Below, in pieces: positions 12,901-59,620 of a stretch of 64,000 nt of DNA. Below the pieces are notes generated by a model that saw only the letters and a program-made list of their open reading frames with translations, was not told where the DNA came from and made no database searches. The position numbers and the translations under genes are program-made. Source of the DNA: Stieleria varia (lineage in GTDB: Bacteria > Planctomycetota > Planctomycetia > Pirellulales > Pirellulaceae); NCBI RefSeq assembly GCF_038443385.1, contig NZ_CP151726.1, positions 6,138,001 through 6,202,000 of the forward strand. The letters are read 5' to 3'. Each line of letters starts with the position of its first letter. The first letter of the stretch is position 1.

Positions 12901-15371
12901 GGTTCGACCAACAACAAGTCGTCTTCACCATCTCCGTCCAAGTCGCCATATTTCGGCAGTACGGCCGTGCGCGTCTTTAAATCAATCGAATCATCAGTAG
13001 TTGGCTGTCCGGTGCGAAGATCAAGTTGAATCAACTGCGTGCCGCAAACCGTCAAGCCGGCGCTGCGATCGGTGTTCAATTTCAGCGGCGTCTGTGCATA
13101 TTCGTGGTCTCCGCTGCGTGAATGATTTCCCGCATCTCGGGTACGGAAATAGCTGTGTCGATTGCTACCTGAATTCCCTGAACTTCCACCCCCTCCAGTG
13201 ATCCACTGTAGCGCCAGCGGAATTTCTTCATTCGCCGAGAGCTGGAAGTACCTTGCAGGAATTTCGTATTTCCAAAGGCTTTCACCCGTTCTGCCAGATA
13301 ACAGCTCGACCCACCGCTGCGTTTCAGTTCGCTTGCTCGGCGCGAAGATAAACGATACGACAACGTCAGCAACTCCATCATCATCAACATCGGGAACCAA
13401 TTGTGGCGGCCCGACGGTGGTGCTCGTCAACTGGTACTGTTGCTTCGGTTTCTCTCCTTGAGTTGTTTCGCCCCTGGCCGCAATCCATAGCGGTTTCCCG
13501 TCGCGGCCATTGATCGCAATGATCCACGCCTGATGTCGTGCGGCCAACAGCAGATCGCTGTGGCCATCGTCATTCAGATCAGTATTTTCCTTGGTCTCGG
13601 CAGCATCGCTTTGCTCATTAGGAATGATCCAGGGTCGCTGATCCCAGAGACCTAATCCTCGGGAATAGCTTCCCCCGTGAAACTGATTCCAGGGCCAAAT
13701 CAATTGCGGCACCGCTTTGAGGGCATCCTGTTCGGGTGTTTGTAGATTTAGGTCCCAGCGGGCGTAACCGCTCAGTCCGCCGATGCAACGGATCCCCTGT
13801 TCGCCCAGTTCGATGATGTCGACACCGCGCGTCCCGCCATTGTCGTCCATTCGTGACGCCAACCGAAAACCGCCCGAAAGCTCGACGTCCTTCCACAGCA
13901 ATCGCGAATCAAGATCTAGTTCGTGATCGATCTCACTTCCTGGTTGCAAGCTCATGCCAATCGTTTGGCTCAAGCGACCATGACCAGCGACCCGCACTTG
14001 ATAGTCGCCGGCTTCGATCTCCAATCGCTGTTGCGTTGGCACAGCGATCAACGGAACCGCACGCGTATCGCCATCCAACAATTCAGCAACCAGTGGCTGA
14101 TGTTTCGCACGCAGCATCACACTTGCCAAACGTGATCGCTGGTAGGCATAGCTGATTCCAACAACCAGTAAGGTCAGCAACAACGTGGCTGCTACCGCAC
14201 CGCCAGCCAGTGCAACGCTACGACGTTGACGTTTCACCCAACGCGAGGCTCGTTCTGTAAAGCCAACTCGTCGCGCCGAGATCGGACGCCCTTCTTGAAA
14301 CGCTCGCAGATCGCTAGCCAAATCATTGGCCGAATGGTATCGCTGCGAGGCGTCTTTCGACAAGCATTTCACCAGGATCGTGTCGAGATCGCGTGGCAAA
14401 GAAGGACGGTGTACGTGTGGTGCGATCGGCTCGCTGGCAATGATTTGACTGATCACATCGTGCGGCGAGTTCCCGACGAAAACTGGCTGACCCGTCGCCA
14501 GTTCGTACAACGTCGCGCCGAGTGAATAGATATCGGTCCGATGATCCAGCTTGTGATGCGCCGCTGCGGCTTGCTCGGGGCTCATGTAACGCGGCGTCCC
14601 CAGCAGCGCTCCTGTCATGCTGAGCGTCACATCGTCGAGTCGTTTTGCCAAGCCAAAATCAGTCAGCCAGACGCGTCCTTCGTCATCATCGATCAGCAGG
14701 TTCGACGGCTTGACATCGCGATGAATGACGCCGCGAGCGTGCGCGTGCGCAAGCGCCTCGGCAGCCTGCAATCCCCACCCCGCGACCGTGTCCGGCGCAA
14801 TCGGCACCTTTCGGTCGGCATGTTCACGCAGAACTTGATCCAAGCCGCGACCTTCGATGAACTGCATCGCAAAGTAGTTGACACTGTGTTCACTACCGAC
14901 GGCAAAGATGGGCACGATGTTCGTATGATGCAAACTGGCGACGGTTTGCGCTTCGCGCTGAAATCGCTGTACTGCGTCCGGATCGCTGACGCCCCCAAAC
15001 CTCAGAATCTTCAGCGCCACGCGCCGCCCGAGCGAAATCTGGCGGGCTTCATAAACCGCGCCCATCCCACCGCGACCGACCTCACGCAGAATCTGGAAAT
15101 CGCCAAGTCGCCGCTGCGAGTGGTCCATATCGCTCGTTGAATGAATGAACTCCAGACCAGCTAGACAAGCTTCAAGCTGGCTGGCCAGCTCTGGGTGCTC
15201 GGACAACAACTGATTCCGATCCGGTAGTTCTCCGGCTTTCAATTTCGCCAGATACTCGTCCAGTACCTCGACCACTCGCAGCACCTGCGACTCGCCGGGC
15301 GCATTGACGCGGATGATCGCCTCCGTTTCGGCTGGTTCGGGGTCTGATTTTTCACGGAATTCGTCGGGCAT
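9912..15371 (-). CDS. Giant Ser/Thr kinase with FG-GAP/VCBS repeats and C-terminal membrane domain
   Basis: This is a 1819-residue protein. Residues 30-80 form the helical pre-kinase region ('VLDEYLAKLKAGELPDRNQL'). The kinase domain is about 92-370: 'GRGGMGAVYEAR' at 99-110, Lys121, HRD 217-219, DFG 238-240. A membrane helix lies at about 393-417 ('VALAGGAVAATLLLTLLVVG'). From about 500 to 1540 there are many FG-GAP/VCBS units with acidic Ca-binding-like loops ('DLDGDGEDDLLLVE', 'DVDADGVNDLFIAS') interspersed with PQQ-propeller-like 'GRDGKPLW' motifs. The last 220 residues contain five further hydrophobic segments ending 'TLRTFWRLFFHGIR'. An N-terminal cytoplasmic kinase, a huge external propeller region and a C-terminal membrane bundle is an unusual layout. 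Substrate and ligand are unknown. It lies 166 nt upstream of the ankyrin/sigma cluster on the same strand. Confidence 0.93.
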   Translation of the reverse strand: MPDEFREKSDPEPAETEAIIRVNAPGESQVLRVVEVLDEYLAKLKAGELPDRNQLLSEHPELASQLEACLAGLEFIHSTSDMDHSQRRLGDFQILREVGRGGMGAVYEARQISLGRRVALKILRFGGVSDPDAVQRFQREAQTVASLHHTNIVPIFAVGSEHSVNYFAMQFIEGRGLDQVLREHADRKVPIAPDTVAGWGLQAAEALAHAHARGVIHRDVKPSNLLIDDDEGRVWLTDFGLAKRLDDVTLSMTGALLGTPRYMSPEQAAAAHHKLDHRTDIYSLGATLYELATGQPVFVGNSPHDVISQIIASEPIAPHVHRPSLPRDLDTILVKCLSKDASQRYHSANDLASDLRAFQEGRPISARRVGFTERASRWVKRQRRSVALAGGAVAATLLLTLLVVGISYAYQRSRLASVMLRAKHQPLVAELLDGDTRAVPLIAVPTQQRLEIEAGDYQVRVAGHGRLSQTIGMSLQPGSEIDHELDLDSRLLWKDVELSGGFRLASRMDDNGGTRGVDIIELGEQGIRCIGGLSGYARWDLNLQTPEQDALKAVPQLIWPWNQFHGGSYSRGLGLWDQRPWIIPNEQSDAAETKENTDLNDDGHSDLLLAARHQAWIIAINGRDGKPLWIAARGETTQGEKPKQQYQLTSTTVGPPQLVPDVDDDGVADVVVSFIFAPSKRTETQRWVELLSGRTGESLWKYEIPARYFQLSANEEIPLALQWITGGGGSSGNSGSNRHSYFRTRDAGNHSRSGDHEYAQTPLKLNTDRSAGLTVCGTQLIQLDLRTGQPTTDDSIDLKTRTAVLPKYGDLDGDGEDDLLLVEPITVGGQYNMPQQRLVAMSVKNGTMLWEKVIEAHLPRQAEIDLPVPDWPQVVDSDGDGTCEVIVPSEATAPRAWGRPWGKVQVIDGETGKPRWERQFFSGDQQIDSFIVGPDVDADGVNDLFIASQWGIDLDLFVDCLSGKDGRSLWRLEQPLLMGDHEGGEFRVGRLQWFEATDDGWPQLMIPMQYDETWEVNAGASDRIVFVSAGRGKLTHIALDASHPKIADLDADGTEDLLYGKQANKDDMHASVTLQAIHGVAREAWHRFLPPQRVVGDLDHDGVADSVQDNLVHELVARSGASGKILWQSAVDKASRRYFVHSTAQRDTRHEIGGHHHDLNGDGVPDILLVRDWRLSRGDSRSVLIAVSGIDGQRLWNSQFVVESLEYMSALDCRDLDGDAQAEIIMVVACDFDQPTNVPQHLGSSTHMTGNDRQLWLAVISGNDGSIRWSKPLCGIQVDGNRQFDIKETFIEPCYDDLNQDGVLDLVLPAQSSDGASTLDMLAINGRDGQTFWGVPLPAFDQPEEAFGNAIPAASGDLDGDGTPEVIVMAFGRNRNQHGQPEQLHVSAHGGSDGRRLWQWETIASRDQNQVERRRDRIQDRLRPLLANRTDGTSAVAFLLWNDGRDIHVINHLGEATTQRIVVDSFFDSGERPFVIDADQDGADELLIINRLEISVRPIDHLDQPIWTRQRVMSDMDEIVGILPDENTPGRIVIQGGTLDGSLRGLDPLTGQTDWTCVGPAVDRQIAAEMLSTPSVEVPPFALFQHDGQAMVRRGSSTQTRFADWTGISAEPARTTPQSFDSRLLRPLPWVPQDFEIAEARKAFLWIGLYGLTMGFVPAAFFYWCVSRRRWGLKSMMLLPIVTAIAMIGMLTQPSNFEFAAWDIKLLGAVMALPILFTLVLFTRWWREGKRRRIAISMLVVAFVSISLGMYAVWLDRYRTGLLQPGERYDWSGWYYGLAPVAYWMFLMPCLAVILFLTLRTFWRLFFHGIRSGKSLVRL

Positions 15372-15867: not shown

Positions 15868-18027
15868 ATGAGCAGCGAATCCCATCAACCGACACAACCG
15901 CATCGCTGTCCACAGTGTGGCAGTCATTTGCCATTCACATCGTCTGAGCGAACGCCCTGTCCTGTCTGTTTGATGAAGCTGGGACTGGAAAGCTGTGCCG
16001 ATCCAACCAGTGATGCCGCAGCCAATGGAGGTCCGGCCGAGACAATCGCAAGCAACGGTGGGTTTGAAGCTCCCGAAATCGACCAACTGCAACCCCACTT
16101 CGCACAGTTCCAATTCATCAGGCTGCTCGGAAAAGGCGGTATGGGAGCGGTCTATGAAGCGAAGCAAACGACCCTTGATCGCACGGTCGCGGTGAAGATC
16201 ATTCATCCGGCCGCTGCCGCCGATAAGAACTTTGCCGAACGGTTTCAGCGTGAAGCTCGTTCACTCGCCAAACTTAGCCATCCGAACATCGTTACCGTTC
16301 ATGACTTTGGCGAGGTGAGTATCCAAGGGAAAAGTGGCGAAGCGAGGAAGCTGTACTTCATCGTAATGGAACACGTCGATGGTGCCAACTTACGTGAGCT
16401 GATGCGGACGAAGGAGTTGACACAGGCGGAATCGCTTCGAATCGTTCCAGCGATTTGTGACGCATTGCAATACGCTCACGACAGCGGCATCGTGCATCGA
16501 GACATCAAACCCGAAAACATTTTGGTGGATCGAACGGGTCGTGTGAAGATCGCCGATTTTGGTTTGGCAAAACTTGTGGGCGGTCTGCAGAAGGACCGCA
16601 CGTTGACAGGCGAGTTCCAAGCAATGGGCACGATGCACTACATGGCACCCGAGCAGCTTGAAAAACCGCTTGAGGTGGATCATCGCGCTGATATCTATGC
16701 GTTGGGCGTGACGCTGTACGAATTGCTCACCGGCGAGTTGCCATTGGGTCGATTCCTGCCGCCATCGCAGCGGGTGCAAGTGGATGTGAGACTGGATGAA
16801 ATTGTCCTCAAGTCGATGGATCGTGAGCCCGGTCGACGGTATCAACATGTCAGCGACGTCAAGACGGATGTTGAACACGTTTCGGCATCTACCGCTACAC
16901 AAACTGAAAATCAAGATGCGCCAACCATCCAACGCAAAACCTATTTGAGCTCGATAGCTGCGACTTGGGTTGGTCTGCCAGATTTTCTTCGCTTTATCGG
17001 CCACCTCATTCTTAGCTTCGGCATCCTCTTCTGCTTGATACGATTCCTCGGTTTCCAGCTTGATCCGTCAAACGGCGAAGTTCATTTCCGCTTCGGTGGA
17101 CCTCAACCGTGGATGACGATTGACATGACGCCGACCAGCAGTTCCGTTCACTGGCATCTAACCCTATCAGCATTGGTGGGTCTGGCTGCATACGGTCTAT
17201 TCAAGTTGGATAGCTGGCTAACGACCATTGAAGGTAAATCCTATCCGTCCGAGATATGGCTCGGATTCGGTATCGGCTTGTTTTACTATTGGTTCCTCGG
17301 CATTTGCTCAATAGGATTGGGAAATAATGCCAGGTTGGCACCCGAAGGCTCGCCGCTCTCGATGCTCCACCTCGGTGCTCAAGGAATGGCACGCTTGATT
17401 TCCGCGATTGGATTTTTGATCATGATTGGCTGCCTCGTGCGAATTTCGTGGGAGGCAAAACAGAATGCGATCGCTCAAAATGGAAAATCTCACACGCCAA
17501 GACTGTTCCATTCCAAAGAAGGTTTGATCGCGATAGGAATTGCCGTCGCAACGTCGCTGGCGTTGATTGCGTTTGTGGTTATCAACATGCGCGCGATCCC
17601 AGTCGCCGAACGCAACCAAGCTGACTGGGAGACAATGCTCCTCGGCGACTGGACCGCGTCGAACGATACCGATGGGGGGCCAAAGCATACGCTCCTGTTT
17701 CTGGAAAGCGGCGAGTTCATGGAATTCGGACGGATGGAAATCTCACTGGGAGATAGTCCAAAGATTGCGGTAACCAAAGACTTAGACGATGATGGCAAAG
17801 AAGACTTCGTACCGGTACGGTTTACGGGCTGGTGGAAACGAAAAGGCGATCAGCTCGTGACACAGATCACTAGCAGCACGATTCATACATTCAACGAAGA
17901 ATCACCCTCCGGACGGCGTTTGTTCGACATCAAAGAACTGACGCCTCACAAGTTATCGCTGGCAATGATCGATGATGCTAAACTAGAAATTGAGCGTTGG
18001 ACTTTCTTTCGGCCCAAAGACCATTAG
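15868..18027 (+). CDS. Ser/Thr kinase with N-terminal zinc ribbon and five membrane spans
   Basis: This is a 719-residue protein; AGGA lies about 9 nt before the ATG. Cys14, Cys17, Cys31 and Cys34 ('CPQC' and 'CPVC') make a zinc ribbon that begins this kinase class in planctomycetes. The kinase domain is about 81-340: 'LGKGGMGAVYEAK', Lys110, HRD 210-212, DFG 230-232, 'GTMHYMAPEQ' activation segment. Hydrophobic helices follow at about 375-397, 430-448, 462-485, 500-523 and 550-573. The C-terminal 140 residues are a soluble beta-rich domain with 'WTASNDTDGG' and a D-x-D-x-D-x-K-x-D loop, resembling lipocalin-like stress domains only vaguely. An ECF sigma gene follows after 14 nt, so the two are almost certainly co-transcribed and functionally linked. 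Confidence 0.92.
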   Translation: MSSESHQPTQPHRCPQCGSHLPFTSSERTPCPVCLMKLGLESCADPTSDAAANGGPAETIASNGGFEAPEIDQLQPHFAQFQFIRLLGKGGMGAVYEAKQTTLDRTVAVKIIHPAAAADKNFAERFQREARSLAKLSHPNIVTVHDFGEVSIQGKSGEARKLYFIVMEHVDGANLRELMRTKELTQAESLRIVPAICDALQYAHDSGIVHRDIKPENILVDRTGRVKIADFGLAKLVGGLQKDRTLTGEFQAMGTMHYMAPEQLEKPLEVDHRADIYALGVTLYELLTGELPLGRFLPPSQRVQVDVRLDEIVLKSMDREPGRRYQHVSDVKTDVEHVSASTATQTENQDAPTIQRKTYLSSIAATWVGLPDFLRFIGHLILSFGILFCLIRFLGFQLDPSNGEVHFRFGGPQPWMTIDMTPTSSSVHWHLTLSALVGLAAYGLFKLDSWLTTIEGKSYPSEIWLGFGIGLFYYWFLGICSIGLGNNARLAPEGSPLSMLHLGAQGMARLISAIGFLIMIGCLVRISWEAKQNAIAQNGKSHTPRLFHSKEGLIAIGIAVATSLALIAFVVINMRAIPVAERNQADWETMLLGDWTASNDTDGGPKHTLLFLESGEFMEFGRMEISLGDSPKIAVTKDLDDDGKEDFVPVRFTGWWKRKGDQLVTQITSSTIHTFNEESPSGRRLFDIKELTPHKLSLAMIDDAKLEIERWTFFRPKDH

Positions 18028-21828: not shown

Positions 21829-22362
21829 GGCTAAAACTGGGCTGTTCAAAATTTGGAGTTGACTTGATGTTTCGGCGTTTTTCTTGGAGCCGTTTCTTGT
21901 CCACTGCCACCTCCCCCAAGGAACTTGGGGGAGGTCGAGCAGAGCCGTTTAGGCGAATGCGAGGGAGGGGGCATTGCGAGCCGGTTGGGCATTAGAGCAC
22001 GGTTTGCCCAGCGTAGGCCCTCTTCCGGATCTTGCTTCGCTCGATCCGACCTCCCCCAGCTGCGGAGACTGCTGATTTAGTCGTGTTGCATTGTGACTGT
22101 GAGCCGATGGCGCTAGCCACGGGCCTCGAACGGTTCCGTCAACACCATTAGGCCCGCGGCTAGTGGCCTGTTGATTTAATCGAAATTGGGAACGCAAGGG
22201 TGAGCCGTGGGCCGTAAGGCACCGGGCAATGCGGTAGGCCCGGCCGCTTACGCGTCGCGGCTCACTAAATCAGCAGTCTCCTGCGCCGGGAGAGGTGACA
22301 GAAACTTGCGGAGCGCCACAGTGCTACAACCCCAAATCTTGAACAGCCCAGGCTAAAACTGG
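21829..22362. mobile_element. MITE-like repeat element with terminal inverted repeats
   Basis: The 12-mer GGCTAAAACTGG occurs at 21829-21840 and again at 22351-22362. Just inside are inverted ends: 'GCTGTTCAAAATTTGGAGTT' on the left and its near reverse complement 'AACCCCAAATCTTGAACAGC' on the right (two mismatches in the compared stretch). No transposase frame is present in the 510 bp between. Inside are nested palindromes: CCTCCCCCAAG...CTTGGGGGAGG near 21909-21932, an 18-bp perfect inverted repeat at 22064-22081 / 22264-22281, and the 'GTGAGCCG...GCGGCCGGG' module. Parts of it recur at 34046-34133, 40999-41078 and 49514-49830. The direct repeat is consistent with target duplication, though it overlaps the inverted ends by a few bases. 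Confidence 0.65.
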
Positions 22363-40204: not shown

Positions 40205-41002
40205 ATGAGGGCACGACTTTGCACCCAGCTGGCAACTTCAAAATCGGCAGTCGGGCTACTGGTCGTGTCATGCATGCTGATCTCCTGTTGTCGCTCGTTG
40301 ATCGCTCAAGACACAGCGGTGGTGGAGCCCAAGCGAACGACTGCTCAGGAGTTCAACGCCAGCCGAGACCCGGAGAACAAACTCGTTGAACTGGCTTCGC
40401 TGCCTGAGCCGCCTGAGTCCATCGCACAACTGCTGCGCGATGCGAAGGTCCAAATCGTGACAGGCGGCAAATCCATGTCAGAGAAAACAAAGTTCGAATC
40501 AGCAAGAATGAAACTCGGAGCCGAAACCCGATTTCAGTTGAAGCACCATTATCGCGCCCGTTCTTCATGGCGAATTCGGAACTCGGGTTCCAATGCAGAA
40601 CTTGTGATCACCGCCCGATTCCTACGGGCCAATCTGATGAAGACCCATGAGGTTTGGTTTCGCATGATGCCTGGGTCGGATGGTTTTTGGGAAAATCCCT
40701 TGGTGTTGCACGAACTGGACCACGTTAAGCTTTCCAGCGACAAACGAATCGAAAAATTCTTTGCCGAACAACTCGATCAGAACAAGCTCATCGTGCGTCG
40801 TCTCAACGAAGTCGCACCGAATGGCCAACGCGTCAACGATCAACTGATTCAGAGGTTGATCGATGAAGTCGTCCAGGAAGCGTTTGACCAAACCGTTTCG
40901 TTGGTCGAAGTTCGCTACAAAGAGCTGGATCGATTGACCAGCCACGGAATCAAACCCGTGCCGGCTGAATCAGACGTTTCCGCTTGGCTAGCCGCAGAGT
41001 GA
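40205..41002 (+). CDS. Secreted protein with an HExxH motif (possible zinc protease)
   Basis: This is a 265-residue protein; the ATG at 40205 has GGAA about 8 nt upstream. A signal sequence is evident ('SAVGLLVVSCMLISCCRSLIAQ'), with cysteines that could act as a lipobox. The middle is beta-rich ('FQLKHHYRARSSWRIRNSG'), then 'FWENPLVLHELDHVKLSSDK' contains H-E-L-D-H, an HExxH zinc-binding motif, followed by a helical C-terminus. The order of a beta region, W-x-N-P-[LV]-V and HExxH resembles DUF922 putative zinc proteases, but I am not sure. Its stop codon TGA lies inside the first bases of a dispersed repeat copy (40999-41078). Confidence 0.7.
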   Translation: MRARLCTQLATSKSAVGLLVVSCMLISCCRSLIAQDTAVVEPKRTTAQEFNASRDPENKLVELASLPEPPESIAQLLRDAKVQIVTGGKSMSEKTKFESARMKLGAETRFQLKHHYRARSSWRIRNSGSNAELVITARFLRANLMKTHEVWFRMMPGSDGFWENPLVLHELDHVKLSSDKRIEKFFAEQLDQNKLIVRRLNEVAPNGQRVNDQLIQRLIDEVVQEAFDQTVSLVEVRYKELDRLTSHGIKPVPAESDVSAWLAAE

Positions 41003-41078
41003 GCCACGACACGTAAGCGGCCGGGCCTGCCGCGTTGCCAGGTGCCTTGCGGCCCATGGCTCACCCTTGCGTTGCCAA
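40999..41078. repeat. Partial copy of repeat family 1 (inverted relative to 22187-22266)
   Basis: From GTGAGCC at 40999 to 'CTCACCCTTGCGTT' the sequence matches the reverse complement of 22187-22266 at high identity, including 'GTAAGCGGCCGGGCCT' and the closing 'GGCTCACCCTTGCGTT'. It forms a large palindrome (GTGAGCC...GGCTCAC). The TGA stop of the HExxH gene is within its first four bases. The rest of the gap to 41299 holds further palindromic repeat pieces of the 'TCGAGCGACAGTCGCT' type (41157-41200, 41281-41303) and no gene. Confidence 0.8.
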
Positions 41079-49509: not shown

Positions 49510-49997
49510 TGTTGGAGACTGCTGACTTAGCCGTGTTGCGTTCTATCTGTGAGCCGATGGCGCTATCAAACGCCGTGAGCCGCGACGCGTGAGCGGCCGG
49601 GTCTTACACGTACCAAGCATCCATTTCAGTGCGTAAAACCCGTGGCCTGACGGCCAGCGGCGCAGGGCGCATGACACCACCCAGCGTTTGATAGCACAAC
49701 CATGCTAAGCGGGACGCCAAGGCGAATGACGGCTCTAACCCTGGGCGATGTTGTTAAACGCCTTCGGCGCAGGGAGAAAAGTTGCGCATGCCAATCCCCG
49801 TACAACCCCAAACTTTGATCAGCCTAAGCTAAGAACGCGAGTTGAGCTAAGATACCAGCACGACGCGCAAGCGAGTGATTCACGGCGTTTTGTTCACGCG
49901 CTTGCGCTTCGTGCAGGTATCTGCAGGTGGACTGAAACACGGGCGCCCCACGATGCTATCCTACACGTTTCTTCAGCCATTTCATTCGGGATTCACG
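49510..49997. repeat. Degenerate family 1 repeat and flanking palindromes after leuB
   Basis: From 49514 'GGAGACTGCTGACTTAG' and 'TGTGAGCCGATGGCGCT' match the 22064-22120 part of the 21.8-kb element, and 'CAACCCCAAACTTTGATCAG' near 49804 matches its right end, so a rearranged 300-bp copy lies here. It also contains 'GTGAGCCGCGACGCGTGAGCG'-type pieces split over 49574-49600. Further on, 'ACGCGCAAGCGAGTGATTCA' and 'TTCACGCGCTTGCGCTTCGT' (49863-49911) form another loose inverted repeat. No gene is evident until 49998. Confidence 0.7.
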
Positions 49998-51654: not shown

Positions 51655-51760
51655 CAATCCACCTTCGATCAGTTGCTCTCTATTCTCTAGTGCGTCGATG
51701 GGCTTCAAGGGCGCGCGAAATCTCACCATTTTCTTGCTACTTCATCACCATTTAGTTTTC

Positions 51761-52483
51761 TCACTTGGCGAACGGGTCCTTTTGCGGTGCCGTGATGTCA
51801 CCACGCAAACGGGGCTCGTTCGACGATCGGATCTCGTGCATCCGCCGCATTCTTTCCAACGTCATCATGGATGCGGTATGCACTTCCCGGTTTGCATTGA
51901 TGGTCAGCAGGCCATCGCCTGCCGATGCAGAATATTCGCCTCCGTTTTGAGTCCATTGATTCGGGCTGATGGATTTCAACAAATAGTCAACGATTCGCGA
52001 TTCCTTTCCTTCAGTAAACCCCGGAAGTTTGTAGACACGTACGTATTGATATGTCTTTGCGTTTTCGATGGAAGTGATCTGAATCGCCTCATCGCGGATG
52101 ATGTAGGACATCCCAAGGGGCGGGAGCATCAAATCAAGGGCACTGCGCAGTGTGAACCCCTTGGCATCTATCGTAACCGGAACCTCGAGGTCGGGCTGGG
52201 CGGCCTCCATCCATTCTTGGTCGACAATGATTCGAACATTATGTTTGTCTGCCAGCAAAGGGATGATGTCGATCAGTGGCGACTGGATCGCATAAAGGGA
52301 AGTTCGCTCGCCAAGCACTTCCTCCAGTCGTGCTTCTGCTTGCACCGAATTAGTGAAGGAGCTCGTATTGACCACTGACGCCTGACTCGGCGAGGTCTGT
52401 GGTTCGTCGCCGTGGGTTACCGCAGTCATCATTAGCAAGACGAGCAACCCATTCAGGACAACATTGGAAACGCTAGATGGCAT
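51761..52483 (-). CDS. Secreted STN-like domain protein, paralogue of the 53.3-kb domain
   Basis: This is a 240-residue protein. It has a signal peptide ('VLNGLLVLLMMTAVTHGDE') and a domain from about 60 to 160 with 'PLIDIIPLLADKHNVRIIVD', 'FTLRSALDLMLPPLGMSYII' and 'RDEAIQITSIENAKTYQYVR'. This order (L-x-D-[IV]-[IL]-x-x-[LF]-[AS] ... [IV]-x-[IV]-D ... L-x-x-[AS]-L-[DN]-x-[ML]-L ... G-[ML]-[ST]-[YW]) is that of the secretin and TonB short N-terminal (STN) fold common in planctomycete exported proteins. The C-terminal part 'DGLLTINANREVHTASMMTL' aligns with 'DGWLTISANREVHEAAAALL' of the domain at 53289-54065, so the two are paralogues by duplication. Confidence 0.8.
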   Translation of the reverse strand: MPSSVSNVVLNGLLVLLMMTAVTHGDEPQTSPSQASVVNTSSFTNSVQAEARLEEVLGERTSLYAIQSPLIDIIPLLADKHNVRIIVDQEWMEAAQPDLEVPVTIDAKGFTLRSALDLMLPPLGMSYIIRDEAIQITSIENAKTYQYVRVYKLPGFTEGKESRIVDYLLKSISPNQWTQNGGEYSASAGDGLLTINANREVHTASMMTLERMRRMHEIRSSNEPRLRGDITAPQKDPFAK

Positions 52484-52539
52484 GACATTCTCTCCGGAAA
52501 ATTGAGTGGTGGTGTCCGCAAGTATCTGATGTTTGCGGG

Positions 52540-53082
52540 CTACGGTGACTTCGCGTCTTCATTTGTCTTCTCCGCCTTGAAACGCTCGTCGACGATGGGC
52601 GTATTGGCTGGCAGTTGAATTCGATTCAGGTCAATGATTTGTCCGTCAACGACCAATTCGATGTAGTTGGTCCATTGCCAGCGCGATCGGGATTCAGCGG
52701 GGTAACCTTCGATGGGCGCTTCGGGCGTCTTTGGGTTGTCCCACTGTCCTTTGGGAGGACAATGAACGACAACGCCCGCATGGTCTTTGCCTAGAAAGAA
52801 GTTGGGCGATTGCACCAGAAAGATGGGGGCCCCTTCGCTCTTGACTTTCAGGATGAACGGCCAGGCGGCCTCAAACTCTTCTCGAGTCTTGAAGCGCATT
52901 GCGAAATGCTGTGCCTCCAACGTCGGGCCGACCAAAGTACGTGATTGCTTGCGCAGTGGTTCCAGTTCACTCGGCCACTCTTTCGGCCAATCTCCCGTCT
53001 CGGAAACCGAATAGAGCGCGAAAGCGGTGGAACTCAACGCCAAAAAGGCGAGGACGACAATTGAAACTCTTGTATTGCACAT
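52540..53082 (-). CDS. Secreted protein of unknown function in the sigma/kinase cluster
   Basis: This is a 180-residue protein; the ATG at 53082 has GGAG 9 nt upstream. A signal sequence is present ('MCNTRVSIVVLAFLALSSTA'). The mature part begins 'WPKEWPSELEPLRKQSRTLV' and goes on 'MRFKTREEFEAAWPFILKVK', 'EGAPIFLVQSPNFFLGKDHA' and 'WQWTNYIELVVDGQIIDLNR'. No known family is recognised; the W-P-x-E-W-P-x-E-L-E-P-L phrase recurs in small planctomycete exported proteins by recollection. It lies between the two STN-like genes on the same strand, 56 nt before the second. Two hairpins occupy the 206-nt gap upstream. Confidence 0.7.
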   Translation of the reverse strand: MCNTRVSIVVLAFLALSSTAFALYSVSETGDWPKEWPSELEPLRKQSRTLVGPTLEAQHFAMRFKTREEFEAAWPFILKVKSEGAPIFLVQSPNFFLGKDHAGVVVHCPPKGQWDNPKTPEAPIEGYPAESRSRWQWTNYIELVVDGQIIDLNRIQLPANTPIVDERFKAEKTNEDAKSP

Positions 53083-53170
53083 GATGGATACTCCAAATTG
53101 GGATCTTGAATTGGTTTGCGAAATCAAGTCGGCTGCTGTTAGTAGGTCTGTCACGGCTTAGTTTTAGGGT

Positions 53171-53228
53171 AGCAAAACTCGCCAAGAGTTTCGGCAGTAA
53201 ATCACCGAAAGTCTTGACGACTTTCGCT
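53171..53228. repeat. Two adjacent small hairpins
   Basis: AAACTC-GCCAA-GAGTTT (53171-53195 region) and CGAAAGTC-TTGAC-GACTTTCG (53207-53226) are short perfect palindromes with 5-nt loops, in similar sequence contexts ('AGCGAAAGTCGTCAAGACTT' and 'GCCGAAACTCTTGGCGAGTT' on the minus strand). They are between the frame-shifted kinase tail and the next gene and may process or partly terminate the transcript. No U-tract. Confidence 0.6.
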
Positions 53229-53288
53229 ACGGCCTCAACCCGAACATTCAGTTGTCACGGACCTCAATAAATCTTTTGCAGTTCCCCG

Positions 53289-54065
53289 CTATTCGTCTTG
53301 GCTTGATGGGACGCCTAACTCCGGCAATGATCGTTGTTGCTTCGGTGTCTGCCATTCCTCCAACAAAGCGGCGGCTGCTTCGTGAACCTCCCGATTCGCA
53401 CTGATGGTCAACCAACCGTCGGTTGCCGAGGCAACATATTCACCTCCAACAAGCCACCAGCTTTCTGGAGTGATTTTCGTCGTCAAGGCCTGAATGACCT
53501 GCTCCTCCTGCCCTTTCAATGGCGGCGGCAATTCATGGACTCGTTCGTATTGGTAGGCCTCCGCCCTGTCGATCGAAGTGATGCGGATTTCGTCGTCGCG
53601 GACGATGTAGGACATTCCCAGCGGTTCCAGGATGAAGTCGAGTGCCGCTCCCAGCGAAAGGTCGCCCAGGTCTGTGCTGACTGGCTGATTCAAATCCGGC
53701 GTTTCATCCTCCAGCCACAACGGGTCGATATCGATTTTTACATCGTGGAATCTGGCAAACTGTTCGGCAACTTCAGCAAGCGGCAACTTCTTGATGGATT
53801 TTAACGTTGGCTGCTGAAGCATCTTGTGAATCTTGTCTTCTACCTGTGTTCTTCGAGTCGCTCGGTAGGGGCGATATTTGTGAAGAGTTGCCTCGTCGGT
53901 CGGTGAACCCGCGTCCGAGACGCCCGCCGATGGCTGATAGGCTCGATCCAGTAGCTGCTCAAACTTGCTCTGTTCTCGTGGTAAACGCTCGTGTGAGGCG
54001 CCGAGTCCGCCAAGTCTCACGTTGTCAAAGTTCTTCATCATCTCCACCCTGATTTGTTCCCACAA
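53289..54065 (-). CDS. STN-like domain, likely the frame-shifted C-terminus of the upstream kinase
   Basis: This frame encodes 258 residues with an STN-like core ('LPLAEVAEQFARFHDVKIDI', 'LSLGAALDFILEPLGMSYIV', 'RDDEIRITSIDRAEAYQYER') and a C-terminus paralogous to the secreted gene at 51761. It has no signal peptide, and no real start: the frame can begin at a TTG at 54065 but stays open upstream to about 54315, reading 'NWIDQNKGNAGTRNELQEII' and 'GNVFDVWEIRFGDKDAVPWL', which is protein-like. The kinase frame over the same stretch is nonsense. A -1 shift near 54296-54301 joins the two into one polypeptide of about 1853 residues. I list it separately because the sequence as given needs a frameshift. 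Confidence 0.7.
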   Translation of the reverse strand: MWEQIRVEMMKNFDNVRLGGLGASHERLPREQSKFEQLLDRAYQPSAGVSDAGSPTDEATLHKYRPYRATRRTQVEDKIHKMLQQPTLKSIKKLPLAEVAEQFARFHDVKIDIDPLWLEDETPDLNQPVSTDLGDLSLGAALDFILEPLGMSYIVRDDEIRITSIDRAEAYQYERVHELPPPLKGQEEQVIQALTTKITPESWWLVGGEYVASATDGWLTISANREVHEAAAALLEEWQTPKQQRSLPELGVPSSQDE

Positions 54066-54118
54066 TTCCTGTTCATGAGGCGTTTTCGGACGCGAGGTAA
54101 GGAGAACGTCGCGAATCT

Positions 54119-57100
54119 TCAGCCATGGGACGGCGTCCTTGTCCCCGAAGCGGATTTCCCAGACATCAAATACGTTTCCCTCACTGATATAACGCGAGGA
54201 ATAGGACAGTTGATGTCCTGGCTGAAACGTTTGCGTGTCAATGATCTCCTGCAGCTCATTGCGTGTTCCTGCGTTACCCTTGTTCTGATCAATCCAATTT
54301 CGTAGCGAGCAACGACTTCATCAGTCGTGAGCTCCTGTTGCTTGCGTCCAACCTCGCTTTGACGTGCCATTCGATTGAATGCGGCGACTGCGTCATTAAC
54401 TGATGCGACTTGCTTTGCCGTAAGGAAACCGAATTGCCCGGTGATCCGTGATTCGAATTTTGCTGACCGGTTATCCTGTGAGGCGCCAGCGGAGGACAAC
54501 CGAGGCTCTCCCATCGTCGAGTTGTCCAGTCGCAATTGAAAGCCGTTTTTAAGCTCCGCATCGAGCTTCGCCTGTGGCTCATCCTGCGTCAGTGTATCTG
54601 CGGGAACCGGAGTGTGGCGATCTCCGATACGAAGGGTGCGGATGGGGTCGCTGTACCACAGCGACCCAATTAAGTATTCAGGTTTGCGCGGCACAAACAG
54701 TCGAGCGTCCCAGTAGTCGGATTCGTCACGTGCCACCAACTTATAGGAATCCAGCCGGCAATCATGGAGAACGCTTCGCAGCACTCGATTGACCGCGTTG
54801 GAATGATCGTCTTCCTTCATTACCCCGTCAGCCAGGATCGTCAGATGACGCTGGCCGAGAATCTGCTCCATCGCTGTCGCGGAATGCCACTCCACCTTCA
54901 GTGGAATCGTGACGTACTCGCCTTCTTCCTGTGGCACCGCCTGAACCCGCTCCACACCTCCGAGTTCAGCCTCTGCTGAAGCTGGCTTTTTTGGAGCATC
55001 GATTTCGTCCATCGCCGCTTGAATCTGCTCGGCGAGAGCCTTCGCGTCGATGTTTCCTGTGATCGTCAACTTGTTTCCGATCGGCGTAAGTACTCTGGGG
55101 GCGCTCAGGACCTTGCGGTCGAACGTGATCACCATGTATCCACTGGTTCCTTGCTCACTCAGTTTCGTTGTTGCCTCCAGAAAACGCGCACCGGCTTCTT
55201 CGGTCAACGTCATGGTAACGATGTCACCTCCGGACGGATTGTTCGGATCGGTGGTGGCGGTGACTTCGATGATGTCGGCTTCGGTCAACACCGATTCTTT
55301 GTCGGACTGAATCATTAACAATGGGCCGCCGGGAACCTGATAAGTCTCTGGTCCCGCGGCCACTTCTGGCTCGTCCTCAGGAACCGCGACGGCTCCATGA
55401 ATCCGCAATCGCCGGACCAGCAGCGGCTCGACGGGCTGGCCATCGGAGATCGTCAGCAGGTTGCGAATGGTCTGCTCGTCGTTATCGTTGGCGAGGAACT
55501 TGACCGTGCCATCAGCGAATGCAGCATGCACGCCTTGCTCGAACCAGCCACCGAACTTGGGCAGCGGTTGATCAGCCGAGTATTCGATGTCGTCGGGCTT
55601 CGTCCATGGGACGTCGCGTTTCGCTTCGATCACTGCGATGCAGTTGGACGTTCCGTCGAGCATGTCCCTGAAGGACGCCCCATGCTGTTTCCAGAATACG
55701 GTGGCTTCGGGCGTGTATTGTTCGAAGTGAGCTTGCAATGTGGCAGGATCATCATCACCAATGTATGCGCTCTCATCCAAGTCATTCGGACCGCCGTCCC
55801 GCTGGTCCCGCATTTCTTGAAGCTGTGCCGCCCGTTTGGAGATGTCGTCTGAAACGACTCCAAAGTAGGACGTGTTGGTCGAATCAGCTTTGTCCAGCGG
55901 CGAGCGATAAACGTCGGGCATCTTCGCGAGTAGTCCCTTGTTATGCTCGCTATTCCAGGGTTCATCGAAATGATACTGGTCATAAAGCTCCTGATGTCCC
56001 AACAGCGGCAACAGTTCGACTCGCCAGCTATGCGGCGGCCCACCCCTGCCGTCTTTGCCGCTGATCGTTCCCGGAGGAAGTTGCCCGTGCACTTCGTGAT
56101 AGTGATGCAGTGCATTGATGATGTGAGTCAGGTTGTTGACGGTTTCTCGGCGCAGGGAAACGGAGAATTGGTTCGCAGAAGGGGCAACGGCACCTCCGGC
56201 GGAATCAGTAACCTGCCCAGCCGAATCCTTTGGATTCGTCCCGCCGAGCGTCGCGGCAAAATCACCGTCTTGGAATTTTTCGTCGACGAAGTAGTCATCC
56301 AGCAGGATGATGTTCATGGCGGCGTCGAGCTTGGTTCCGCCGAAGCGATCGACTTTGCTTCGCCACGATGCAATGTCTTGTTTCGCAAGTTGGCTGAGTC
56401 GCTTTTGATACTTGATGGCCAGATCCTGCGCGATGGAAGATTCGGCCATGCCAGACGCAAGTGACAGATCGGTGGTTCCGCTTGACAGCTCGTGAATTTC
56501 ATCATCAAACAACGCGTCAACGGAAATCAAAACCAGTGGCACCGCATAGCTGGGGCCACCGTCGAACACTTCTCGATCATTCTGCCCGATTGTTTCCTTC
56601 ATCAAGGATTCAAACGCGTTCTTCCACGCCTCAACCTCCGATGGGTTCAATGACTGCAGTTGTTTGAACAATCGGCTCGCAGTATTCGTGTTCCAATCAC
56701 CGTCTTCGAACAGGACACCCATACGATTGACGATGTATGTCCGGCATGCCTGGCGTGCCATCTCGCCGTTCAGTTTGTCACCCGTGACCCGCTCTAACTC
56801 GACAAGCCACTTGTCCAGTTCCCCATCAGGTACTGCCTCCAAACGTCTTGTTAGTTCGGCGCCCATGGCAACGCTAATTGGATCGCCGGATGGAATAACA
56901 GGCGCGCCTCCGGGCGGTTTGATCTCTTGAAGATTCTTTCGCAGGCGTCCGTAGGGCCAATCGCCCAGGGCACTTGCTACCGGGGCAACTTTTACGATTC
57001 GGACAACATCGTTTCCACCTCGCTGCAACGTGACAGAGTCGTCGTCGAGCGCCAGCCCGTCGATCTGGCCGCCGATCTCGATTTTGTAATTCCCCGCCGC

Positions 57101-58849
57101 GATGCGAACGGACTTGCCAGATTTTGAGACAGTCAGTTCTTCGACAACGTCTTTGCCCTGGACAACGCGAATCGGAACGTCGTCGGCCTCGCTTTCAATG
57201 CGCAGCGTGCCCTTGTTCCACTGAAGGACGATCAGGACGCCGGCAAGTAGAAGAATCGGCAGAAAGCAAGTTGCAAGGAACTTGGACGACCAGCCACGCT
57301 TCGACCCACTTGAATTTGGTTCAGCGACCGACTGAGGGAGTCGATCTGCATAGCGTCGGACCGCCGCGTTTGCGGTCGTGACCGGAGTCAGTATTGACGA
57401 TAGGGGTGTTAGCAACTGGGTCCGCACTGTGTCTCCATCGCGATAGCGGATCGATAGAAAATCCATCCGCGCCGGATGCGTTAAACGTGAGTAATGTCCA
57501 ATCGAGACTTCTTCAATGCACAATAACGGGATCTTTTGATGCAGGCCGCTGTTGAACGTCCACTCGATTGAATCATTATTCAGACGCACCTTACCGCGTT
57601 CCAGGAACGGCCAGACGTGGCGACCGAAGAAGCTGCGCTGATGGTCCGGACTGGAGAATACGCACTTGGCCCATTGCGAAAGATCGGTTGTCACCACGCC
57701 GCTGGTATGATCTTCGGGTATCATCGGCAATTCAAACTGCAAGGGTTGCTGAACATGAGCCACGCATTTTTCGAGCAGCTCCGCGACTTCCTTGGCAGAA
57801 TCGAACCGATCATCGGCATCTTTGGCCATCAGTTTCTGAATGATCGCACACAACCAGTCGGGGATATCGGGATTGGTCTCGCGGATCGGTCGGGGATGCT
57901 TGTCGGTGATTAGACGCAGTACACTGAAGCTCGATTCGGCCCGAAACGGTGGGTGCCCTGTACACATCGCGTACAGAACGCTGCCCAGAGAGAACAAGTC
58001 ACTGCGATGATCGATCTTCTCGGCCCTCGCTTGCTCGGGCGACATGTATTGCGGCGTCCCGGCGATCACGCCGCTGCAAGTCATCGAGGCATCGTCAACG
58101 GCGCGGGCGAGCCCAAAGTCCGTGATGGTGACGCGTTCGACGCCTTGTTCCATCAGTATGTTGCCGGGCTTGATGTCACGGTGGACGAGGCCCTGATCAT
58201 GCGCGGCGGCCAAACCGGCGGCGACCTGAGCAGCGATACGCAGAATATCGACCAATGGCAAGGGACCTTCGGCGTCGATTCGTTTCTGTAGCGACTGGCC
58301 ACGCACATACGGCATCACCAAATAGGGCAACGCTTGTTCGTTGGAGACACCATGAATCGCGATCACGTTGGGATGCAGCACGGCAGCGGCCGCTTTCGCT
58401 TCCCTTGCAAAACGCTGGCGAGCCGATCCGCTGGCCGCCAGATGCGGAGCCATCACCTTGACCGCCACCACGCGATCGAGCGATTGATCGCGAGCCTTCA
58501 GCACGACGCCCATCCCACCGCTGCCGATTGCACCAGTGACTTCATAGCCGCCAATTCGACCGAGCGAGTCGGGGTCGTCGGTGGGCGAAAGCTGCGACAA
58601 GACCAACTCGATCTGCGCGTCGCGCGAGCGAGTGACTGAAAACTCGGCTTCATGTGCCTGAGCGACCGGTTCACCGAGAAAGACGCTGGCTTCGCGCCAT
58701 GCGGAGGCTTCAGCAACTTGCTGCTCAAGTGCTAGACCGCACGATTCGCATTCGTCCAGATGCGAAGTGAGTTCCCGCTCAGCCTGGTCGCTCAGTTCTC
58801 CACGCACAAACGACGAAAGTCGATTCGGATCACAAACTTGCTGATTCAT
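54119..58849 (-). CDS. Membrane Ser/Thr kinase with zf-HC2, DUF1559-like and SecD-head-like regions
   Basis: This is a 1576-residue protein as read. Residues 10-40 are a zf-HC2-type zinc finger (His30, Cys34, Cys37), an element known from anti-sigma factors. The kinase domain is about 100-365: 'GSGGMGVVLKAR', Lys131, HRD 223-225, DFG 244-246. One membrane helix lies at 524-544. The large external part holds a DUF1559-like region at about 897-1140 ('INALHHYHEVHGQLPPGTIS', 'HAAFADGTVKFLA') and a SecD P1-head-like region at about 1185-1285 ('GYMVITFDRKVLSAPRVL', 'LTITGNIDAKALAEQI'). The last 55 residues look frame-shifted. The start overlaps the sigma gene stop as ATGA. The zf-HC2 head next to an ECF sigma gene suggests direct control of that sigma factor. 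Confidence 0.88.
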   Translation of the reverse strand: MNQQVCDPNRLSSFVRGELSDQAERELTSHLDECESCGLALEQQVAEASAWREASVFLGEPVAQAHEAEFSVTRSRDAQIELVLSQLSPTDDPDSLGRIGGYEVTGAIGSGGMGVVLKARDQSLDRVVAVKVMAPHLAASGSARQRFAREAKAAAAVLHPNVIAIHGVSNEQALPYLVMPYVRGQSLQKRIDAEGPLPLVDILRIAAQVAAGLAAAHDQGLVHRDIKPGNILMEQGVERVTITDFGLARAVDDASMTCSGVIAGTPQYMSPEQARAEKIDHRSDLFSLGSVLYAMCTGHPPFRAESSFSVLRLITDKHPRPIRETNPDIPDWLCAIIQKLMAKDADDRFDSAKEVAELLEKCVAHVQQPLQFELPMIPEDHTSGVVTTDLSQWAKCVFSSPDHQRSFFGRHVWPFLERGKVRLNNDSIEWTFNSGLHQKIPLLCIEEVSIGHYSRLTHPARMDFLSIRYRDGDTVRTQLLTPLSSILTPVTTANAAVRRYADRLPQSVAEPNSSGSKRGWSSKFLATCFLPILLLAGVLIVLQWNKGTLRIESEADDVPIRVVQGKDVVEELTVSKSGKSVRIAAGNYKIEIGGQIDGLALDDDSVTLQRGGNDVVRIVKVAPVASALGDWPYGRLRKNLQEIKPPGGAPVIPSGDPISVAMGAELTRRLEAVPDGELDKWLVELERVTGDKLNGEMARQACRTYIVNRMGVLFEDGDWNTNTASRLFKQLQSLNPSEVEAWKNAFESLMKETIGQNDREVFDGGPSYAVPLVLISVDALFDDEIHELSSGTTDLSLASGMAESSIAQDLAIKYQKRLSQLAKQDIASWRSKVDRFGGTKLDAAMNIILLDDYFVDEKFQDGDFAATLGGTNPKDSAGQVTDSAGGAVAPSANQFSVSLRRETVNNLTHIINALHHYHEVHGQLPPGTISGKDGRGGPPHSWRVELLPLLGHQELYDQYHFDEPWNSEHNKGLLAKMPDVYRSPLDKADSTNTSYFGVVSDDISKRAAQLQEMRDQRDGGPNDLDESAYIGDDDPATLQAHFEQYTPEATVFWKQHGASFRDMLDGTSNCIAVIEAKRDVPWTKPDDIEYSADQPLPKFGGWFEQGVHAAFADGTVKFLANDNDEQTIRNLLTISDGQPVEPLLVRRLRIHGAVAVPEDEPEVAAGPETYQVPGGPLLMIQSDKESVLTEADIIEVTATTDPNNPSGGDIVTMTLTEEAGARFLEATTKLSEQGTSGYMVITFDRKVLSAPRVLTPIGNKLTITGNIDAKALAEQIQAAMDEIDAPKKPASAEAELGGVERVQAVPQEEGEYVTIPLKVEWHSATAMEQILGQRHLTILADGVMKEDDHSNAVNRVLRSVLHDCRLDSYKLVARDESDYWDARLFVPRKPEYLIGSLWYSDPIRTLRIGDRHTPVPADTLTQDEPQAKLDAELKNGFQLRLDNSTMGEPRLSSAGASQDNRSAKFESRITGQFGFLTAKQVASVNDAVAAFNRMARQSEVGRKQQELTTDEVVARYEIGLIRTRVTQEHAMSCRRSLTRKRFSQDINCPIPRVISVRETYLMSGKSASGTRTPSHG

Positions 58850-59445
58850 GCTTCTGATGCCTCCAGTTCGGCAATCACGTCACGCAGTCGCTGCATGATT
58901 CGGCAGCGAGCCGTGTAGATGGTTCCAAGAGATTTTCCGAGTTGATCTGCCGCCGCCCGATTGCTTTGCCCGTCGATGACGGTCAGCTCGAACGCACGCC
59001 AAGTGTCGGGCTGGACATCACTGCGAACGATCTTCGCGGCTTGCTGGTAAAGCTGGCGACGATATTCCCAATCGATCAGCGATTCCGTCTCCGGATCAGT
59101 CTGCTGAAACTGAGCCAACAATTGCTGAACCGACGACCCACCCGCTGCCGGGTCTTTTGGGCCACGAGACAACGCATTGACGATCGCATTGCGAGTGACT
59201 CTGGCCAGCCAATGACGAAATCGCGTGGCCCCGTCCCGCTTCTCCCAATCACCAATTGCCGAAGCCACCGCCAACAGGACCTGCTGTGCAAGATCCTGAG
59301 CATCAGCGTCCTGTAACCCGCGAGCGACGGCGGTGCGAAAGATCACCGGTCGATAAATCGAGACAAACTGCTCCCACGCCGCCCGGTCTTCCGGGTTCTT
59401 GACCTGAACAATCAGGCTTTCGCGTGTTTCTGGGAACTGTGTCAT
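58846..59445 (-). CDS. ECF sigma factor coupled to the zf-HC2 kinase
   Basis: This is a 199-residue sigma-70 family protein. I start at the ATG at 59445 ('MTQFPETRESLIVQVKNPED'), which fits the common planctomycete ECF start T-R-x-S-L-[IL]-x-[RQ]-[LV]-[KR]-[DN]; the frame opens 19 codons earlier. Region 2 is about 30-95 ('DADAQDLAQQVLLAVASAIG'), region 4 about 140-195 ('WRAFELTVIDGQSNRAAADQ', 'LGKSLGTIYTARCRIMQRLR'). Its TGA overlaps the kinase ATG by the ATGA arrangement, so translation is coupled. The kinase carries a zinc finger of the anti-sigma type, making it the likely regulator. Confidence 0.92.
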   Translation of the reverse strand: MTQFPETRESLIVQVKNPEDRAAWEQFVSIYRPVIFRTAVARGLQDADAQDLAQQVLLAVASAIGDWEKRDGATRFRHWLARVTRNAIVNALSRGPKDPAAGGSSVQQLLAQFQQTDPETESLIDWEYRRQLYQQAAKIVRSDVQPDTWRAFELTVIDGQSNRAAADQLGKSLGTIYTARCRIMQRLRDVIAELEASEA

Positions 59446-59620
59446 ACGGTGCGATCGGCTGCTGTGGCAAAGCGAACATTCTACCCGACAGCAGTTAAAC
59501 ACATGATTTCGCCATCCTTACACGAAAATGGCAAAGAAGTTTTCGCATCGTCGATCGACTGACTGAGTCCGGCTCGACGGTACAGCGTATTTTGTCATAC
59601 ACAGCATGACCTACGGTTCG

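What the first reader, a model, noticed from the sequence alone, without database searches (positions are those of the whole stretch)
53289..58849. Kinase and STN-like domain appear to be one gene broken by a -1 frameshift
The kinase frame ends in 55 residues of implausible sequence, while the next frame is open back to about 54315 and reads like real protein ('NWIDQNKGNAGTRNELQEII') continuously into the STN-like domain, which itself has no proper start. Joining at 54296-54301 (GAAATT) yields a kinase of about 1853 residues ending in an STN-like domain. It is either a fresh mutation, a sequencing error, or a real recoding event.
Basis: seen in the sequence. Interest (0 to 1): 0.75.

Follow-up and report, generated by a model that had tools for sequence, protein, structure and literature searches.

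The report
Planctomycete sensor kinase broken by frameshift
A giant membrane kinase gene of a marine planctomycete, intact as one gene in its relatives, is one base short here, so its last 340 residues are cut off; this is an ordinary recent mutation or a sequencing slip, not a special decoding trick.

Summary
On the minus strand the kinase frame (54119-58849) and the STN-like frame (open 54317-53289) overlap. They are one frame in Stieleria sedimenti (2030 aa), a planctomycete MAG and two further family members (open frames 1956 and 2770 aa); eight weaker matches also cross the junction without a shift. The window is one base shorter than S. sedimenti and the MAG at 54309/54310, about ten bases upstream of the proposed join, inside a conserved module. 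The 62-residue kinase-frame tail is poorly conserved, the STN frame has no start codon before 54065, and there is no slippery heptamer. The cut-off part shows normal constraint, so the lesion is young or an assembly error. Frame-broken genes are rare in this genome, which favours a real mutation without proving it; reads would decide. The intact gene is a zinc-finger/Ser-Thr kinase/membrane sensor behind an ECF sigma factor, a known planctomycete arrangement. More interesting than the lesion: the locus is a mosaic, with blocks 94-100% identical to S. sedimenti beside blocks of 68-81%, while other long matches in three 20-kb probes were 65-76%, one of 81% apart.

The parts
58846..59502 (-). ECF-type sigma factor; its end overlaps the kinase start by 4 bases (ATGA)
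   Evidence: Pfam Sigma70_r2 1e-8 (above cut-off), Sigma70_r4_2 6.4e-5 (below cut-off); 84% identical to the S. sedimenti neighbour over 199 residues; coordinates
54119..58849 (-). Kinase frame, 1576 aa: 1514 residues in the relatives' frame, then 62 foreign residues
   Evidence: three blocks with the S. sedimenti 2030-aa protein at 81-86%
58739..58822 (-). Zinc-finger zf-HC2 (residues 10-37)
   Evidence: Pfam E 4.2e-5, above cut-off
57794..58546 (-). Ser/Thr kinase domain (residues 102-352)
   Evidence: Pfam PF00069 E 1.7e-49; HRD and DFG motifs seen in the translation (motif names recalled)
57218..57280 (-). Probable transmembrane helix (about residues 524-544)
   Evidence: hydrophobic stretch read in the translation; no predictor run
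55598..56137 (-). DUF1559 / SBP_bac_10 domain (residues 905-1084)
   Evidence: Pfam E 3.3e-29
55022..55306 (-). SecDF_P1_head-like domain (residues 1182-1276)
   Evidence: Pfam E 1.1e-10
54006..54457 (-). About 150-residue conserved module that spans the lesion (approximate limits)
   Evidence: single-frame homologues in S. sedimenti, MAG, G190, G078
54309..54310 (-). Place of the lesion: window one base shorter than S. sedimenti and the MAG
   Evidence: alignment A1 and 8-kb alignment
54119..54307 (-). Foreign tail of the kinase frame (62 residues) and its stop
   Evidence: 27 of 62 and 30 of 62 identical to the out-of-frame reading of the relatives, against 47 and 45 of 63 in the other frame
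53289..54317 (-). Cut-off C-terminal part in the -1 frame, no start codon before 54065
   Evidence: 78% to S. sedimenti over 336 residues
53577..53705 (-). STN-like stretch
   Evidence: Pfam STN E 0.0027, 17.9 bits, below its cut-off of 28.4
52540..53154 (-). Small gene that follows the kinase also in S. sedimenti and the MAG; no Pfam family at E 0.1
   Evidence: 93% and 80% identical
51761..52483 (-). Stand-alone STN-like gene, N-terminus looks like a signal peptide (by eye); relative of the kinase tail
   Evidence: 43% identical to tail residues 147-324; no Pfam family at E 0.1

Best explanation
The locus is an operon-like pair of an ECF sigma factor and a single very large transmembrane Ser/Thr kinase. 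In the sequenced strain the kinase gene lost one base at 54309/54310, recently. Shown: the one-frame gene in relatives, the one-base difference, the lack of a start for the cut-off part. Inferred: the strain makes a 1576-residue kinase whose cytoplasmic zinc finger, kinase, membrane helix and most outer modules are intact but whose last outer module and STN-like end are missing, replaced by 62 foreign residues. The kinase probably controls its neighbouring sigma factor, as in known ECF-kinase pairs, and may have lost or changed its signal sensing. The deletion is an ordinary loss mutation, not decoding by design.
For: One open frame across the junction in S. sedimenti and a MAG, in G190 and G078, and in eight weaker matches. 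Of six gaps between window and S. sedimenti in the gene, four belong to two swapped blocks (57741 and 57618; 54966 and 54947), one is three bases long, and one is the single base at 54310. In the model of the S. sedimenti end the break falls near residue 57, inside helix 51-63, local pLDDT about 82, though the whole model is weak (mean 62). The cut-off part evolved under constraint: dN/dS 0.18 to S. sedimenti and 0.24 to the MAG; my three-way split of those numbers gives about 0.18 on the window branch. No stop in 339 codons; under neutrality this has probability 0.07 at 0.05 and 0.005 at 0.1 changes per site, so the lesion is young. Frame-broken genes are rare here: 1 gene spread over different frames and 4 matches with internal stops among 377 family matches. 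Of 19 candidate junctions in a 662-kb coding scan this is the only one with no start codon found for the second frame. The only run of four or more bases in the scanned stretch is a GGGG about 160 bases from the lesion.
Against: No reads were available and no second genome of the species was found, so an assembly error is not excluded; a young lesion and an error look alike. The family controls see only breaks inside the profiled domain and would have missed this very lesion (its kinase counts as whole). A few truncated matches in those tables were not followed, and the sulfatase search scored 150 of 182 candidates. The 18 other junctions of the coding scan each have a start codon in reach but were not examined one by one. 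Two of the four stronger relatives are only about 40% identical in this module.
Confidence: 0.62

Rival explanations
1. The gene is intact in the organism and the assembly dropped one base.
For: The cut-off part shows no decay and no stop, exactly what an error predicts. A single base in a 9.72-Mb genome is within what long-read assemblies can miss (recalled).
Against: Not in a long homopolymer; frame breaks are rare in this assembly: 1 gene over different frames among 377 matches of four large families.
Confidence: 0.27
2. Programmed -1 frameshifting or transcriptional slippage makes the full-length and a short kinase from one gene.
For: The downstream frame is under constraint and in the -1 phase.
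Against: No X XXY YYZ heptamer in the kinase frame in the overlap, no run above four bases. Relatives read straight through, so no conserved shift site exists. The lesion lies inside a conserved module and a predicted helix.
Confidence: 0.03
3. The gene split into two working genes: a shorter kinase and a separate STN-like protein.
For: Both open frames persist; start codons exist at 54065-54038.
Against: No start near the beginning of the conserved part, about 84 codons of which would be lost; no signal peptide would precede a part that lies outside the membrane in the intact gene (inference); none of the relatives seen is parted here.
Confidence: 0.05
4. A sub-case of a real mutation: the break came with the recombination that brought in the divergent end from another donor.
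For: The gene is a mosaic; identity to S. sedimenti falls from 97% (54600-54501) to 76% (54400-54301).
Against: The fall starts some 150-250 bases before the lesion and the alignment is clean on both sides of it, so the lesion is inside the divergent block, not at its edge.
Confidence: 0.05

Closest known systems
ECF sigma factor / Ser-Thr kinase pairs (ECF43 EcfP-PknT and EcfK-PknS; planctomycete examples in groups ECF59, 61, 62, 217)
   Same: Sigma factor gene directly before a membrane Ser/Thr kinase gene, here with a 4-base overlap. Planctomycete examples are listed in a table of PMC8999054 (passages seen).
   Different: Group not assigned here. The ECF43 type lacks the acidic DAED motif of region 2 (PMC8103513, passage seen); by eye the window protein has DAQD at the likely place, closer to the other groups, which PMC8999054 says keep a DAED-like motif. 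This kinase has an outer part of about 1300 residues and a zf-HC2 finger.
Planctomycete Ser/Thr kinases with shuffled accessory domains
   Same: Expanded kinase family (127 Pkinase matches in this genome) with many partner domains; paralogization and domain shuffling described for the phylum in PMC8567305 (abstract and passages) and kinase expansion in PMC11032199 (passages).
   Different: Here the swaps are visible at DNA level between relatives, block by block. Word searches found no 'DUF1559' in the two texts and no 'domain shuffling' in PMC11032199.
Ordinary frameshifted genes (pseudogenes) of bacterial genomes
   Same: One-base length change, downstream frame still readable, relatives intact.
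   Different: Nothing beyond the size of the protein and the surviving kinase part.

Membership tests
ECF sigma / Ser-Thr kinase pair | ECF sigma gene (regions 2 and 4 only) beside a Ser/Thr kinase gene | tested here: met
   Sigma70_r2 above and r4_2 below its cut-off, 218 aa; kinase 1.7e-49; 4-base overlap
ECF sigma / Ser-Thr kinase pair | Region 2 acidic motif replaced by phosphorylatable residues (ECF43 type) | tested here: inconclusive
   DAQD seen by eye in the translation; not aligned to ECF43 members
ECF sigma / Ser-Thr kinase pair | Kinase phosphorylates the sigma factor | not testable with these tools
   needs biochemistry
Gene broken by frameshift | Relatives carry the same parts in one frame | tested here: met
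   11 of 11 other matching genomes (8 of them weak) and the MAG
Gene broken by frameshift | Lesion present in the DNA of the organism, not only in the assembly | not testable with these tools
   no reads; no second genome of the species found
Programmed -1 frameshift gene | Slippery heptamer in the upstream frame within the overlap | tested here: not met
   0 heptamers in the overlap
Programmed -1 frameshift gene | Shift conserved in relatives | tested here: not met
   none of the 11 other genomes nor the MAG needs a shift
STN (secretin/TonB short N-terminal) domain | Pfam PF07660 at its curated cut-off | tested here: not met
   17.9 bits against a cut-off of 28.4, E 0.0027

The most novel reading that the evidence does not exclude
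The STN-like end is an exchangeable part that the kinase locus needs only once, in either of two places. In the window the kinase's own end is cut off and the stand-alone STN-like gene next door (51761-52483) is whole; in S. sedimenti the kinase end is whole and the neighbour has lost about 380 bases; in the MAG the kinase end is whole and only a 57-residue match of the neighbour remains. So the frameshift would be a tolerated move from a built-in to a separate sensor part, in a kinase locus that recombines as a mosaic of modules between species.
Probability: 0.07. Interest if true: 0.5.

Novelty: new member of a known kind. Interest (0 to 1): 0.24.

Why it matters
By itself the lesion matters for annotation: the two open frames should be recorded as one broken gene, not as a kinase and a separate STN-like gene. 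The by-product is of wider use: two Stieleria genomes whose other long matches were 65-76% in the probes tried (one of 81% apart) share blocks of this kinase locus at 94-100%, next to blocks of 68-81% or modules that do not align. That shows sensor-module exchange between planctomycete kinases at a stage where breakpoints can still be mapped.

Tried and rejected
Recoding: scanned the overlap for slippery heptamers and runs; none found. Two separate genes: no start codon at the beginning of the conserved part and no parted relative among those seen. Break at a recombination edge: the identity drop starts 150-250 bases before the lesion; on re-reading that table I lowered this rival from 0.10 to 0.05. 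General assembly trouble: a home-made coding model over 662 kb gave 513 coding segments and 19 candidate junctions, this one alone with no start found for the second frame; the first listing of direct switches (7 of them) had missed it, because the model put 11 non-coding bases between the frames. Four families gave 377 matches, 1 gene (kinase at 1868634-1869306, three matches) spread over different frames and 4 matches with internal stops (adjacency judged by eye from the tables; truncated matches not followed). Rfam on the window: 0 matches at gathering scores. Structure: one model, mean pLDDT 62, too weak to trust a fold search; the one fold search asked for was not available. Papers with frameshift, Pirellulaceae, pseudogene and kinase together: 0 in one search.

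Full report
What was checked. The window is G000:C1:6138001-6202000 of a 9,719,866-base single-contig genome, of the same genus as G003. The species was not identified.

The two frames. The kinase frame runs from ATG 58849 to TGA 54121-54119, 1576 aa. The -1 frame is open from 54317, just behind two TGA codons, to the stop at 53289. It has no start codon before TTG 54065. Pfam finds a zinc finger (zf-HC2), a Ser/Thr kinase, a DUF1559 domain and a SecDF_P1_head-like domain in the first, and a sub-threshold STN match in the second.

Relatives. S. sedimenti has one 2030-residue protein that matches the kinase frame in three blocks (81-86%) and then the whole -1 frame, 78% over 336 residues. A planctomycete MAG has one open frame of 1357 residues, running off the contig start, with the same continuation at 74% over 328. 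A search of 241 genomes of the family with 211 S. sedimenti residues around the junction (the break falls at about query residue 52) found matches in 12 genomes. The window's own genome matches in two frames, residues 1-54 and 52-211. The other 11 match across residue 52 in one frame without a stop: S. sedimenti, G190 (open frame 1956 aa, 41%) and G078 (2770 aa, 40%) strongly, and eight weakly (E 3.6e-9 to 3.3e-4, 25-36% identity, open frames 178 to 1340 aa). The surroundings of those eight were not examined. G190 and G078 also carry the kinase at their N-terminus, and the module aligns across the break.

The lesion. In the alignment of window, S. sedimenti and MAG the window is one base shorter at 54309/54310. 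Of the six gaps between window and S. sedimenti in the gene, four belong to two swapped blocks (57741 and 57618; 54966 and 54947), one is three bases (57266) and one is the single base. Behind the lesion the -1 frame agrees with the relatives at 47 of 63 and 45 of 63 residues, the kinase-tail frame at 27 of 62 and 30 of 62. In a model of the S. sedimenti C-terminal end (mean pLDDT 62, so only a hint) the break lies near residue 57, within a helix from 51 to 63.

Age and cause. For the cut-off part, Nei-Gojobori dN/dS is 0.18 (window-S. sedimenti), 0.24 (window-MAG) and 0.31 (S. sedimenti-MAG); subtracting by hand gives dN 0.0975 and dS 0.54 on the window branch, ratio 0.18. No second frame break or stop has accumulated; under neutrality absence of a stop has probability 0.07 at 0.05 changes per site. 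So the break is young on this scale or is not in the organism. Controls on the assembly: 55 DUF1559, 127 kinase, 130 sulfatase and 65 PSD1 matches; one kinase gene (1868634-1869306) lies in different frames and four matches hold stops. These controls see only the profiled domains, and the sulfatase search scored 150 of 182 candidates. In a 662-kb coding scan this junction alone of 19 candidates had no start found for the second frame. Frame breaks are thus rare, which leans towards a real mutation; it cannot settle one base.

Not recoding. There is no heptamer of the X XXY YYZ type in the kinase frame within the overlap and no run above four bases, and no relative seen needs a shift.

How the intact gene likely works. 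The sigma factor gene ends four bases into the kinase gene. Reviews describe ECF sigma factors regulated by a neighbouring Ser/Thr kinase, with planctomycete examples in groups ECF59, 61, 62 and 217 among those proposed (PMC8999054 and PMC8103513, passages seen). By inference, the outer part of this kinase senses a condition at the cell surface and the inner kinase switches the sigma factor. The break removes the last outer module and the STN-like end; the kinase domain itself is untouched, so the result may be a kinase with altered sensing rather than a dead one. None of this was tested.

The mosaic. Against S. sedimenti, identity in 100-base steps swings between 94-100% (for example 56850-55650, 54950-54750, 53050-52600) and lower blocks (68-81% in 55350-54950, 74-77% in 54400-54100, 68-74% in 53850-53650). 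dS runs from 0.05 (codons 640-900) to 0.80 (STN block). Sites that group window with MAG outnumber those that group it with S. sedimenti 72 to 32 in 55450-55001, but are 6 to 70 in 53100-52580 and 3 to 46 in 56150-55850. The MAG's codons opposite window codons 640-900 do not align (dN about 1.08), S. sedimenti has about 306 more residues near window codon 1290, and the window has about 130 of its own behind the kinase domain. Elsewhere matches of 350 bases or more between the two genomes are 65-76% identical in two 20-kb probes; in the probe that holds the locus the matches outside it are 66-76%, apart from a second sigma-factor copy on C54 at 81%, and the genes beside the module match other S. 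sedimenti contigs. Each of these probes scored 40 candidates (of 120, 197 and 279), and matches were not proven to be orthologues. The simplest reading is repeated horizontal exchange and recombination of modules. The lesion itself lies inside a divergent block, not at an edge.

The neighbour. A stand-alone STN-like gene (51761-52483) is 43% identical to the kinase tail. In S. sedimenti it lacks about 380 bases and its frame is broken; in the MAG only a 57-residue match remains. Three loci are too few to call this compensation.

Verdict. A true observation and a mostly right reading: one gene, broken by one base. It is ordinary; the mosaic structure deserves a look of its own.

Noticed in passing
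window 51700-59530: Mosaic kinase locus: blocks 94-100% identical to S. sedimenti alternate with 68-81% blocks or blocks that do not align, while other long matches in three 20-kb probes were 65-76%, one of 81% apart.
   Followed up: partly
window 51761-52483; L039 reverse strand near 12965; L041 about 5136-5306: Stand-alone STN-like gene next to the kinase: whole in the window, about 380 bases lost in S. sedimenti, only a 57-residue match in the MAG.
   Followed up: partly
window 40999-41070, 22194-22265, partial near 49571-49604: Dispersed 72-bp repeat with a partly palindromic look: 8 full or nearly full copies (66-72 bp at 89-100%) and 2 short matches in 750 kb of this genome, and some three dozen matches in S. 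sedimenti, five of them about 208 bases apart in a row on one contig. No Rfam match in the window.
   Followed up: partly
G000:C1:1868634-1869306: Another kinase gene of this genome whose domain lies in three different open frames.
   Followed up: no
G000:C1:6571040-6571831: Kinase domain match with one in-frame TGA in an otherwise long frame.
   Followed up: no
window 2564-6889, 9912-15371, 15868-18027: Three further kinase genes in the same window (matches at G000 6143741, 6152331, 6154111).
   Followed up: no
G000:C1:1662000-1714000 (L077, L078): Cluster of paralogous sigma factor and kinase pairs, one kinase sharing the codon 468-884 region at 63%.
   Followed up: partly
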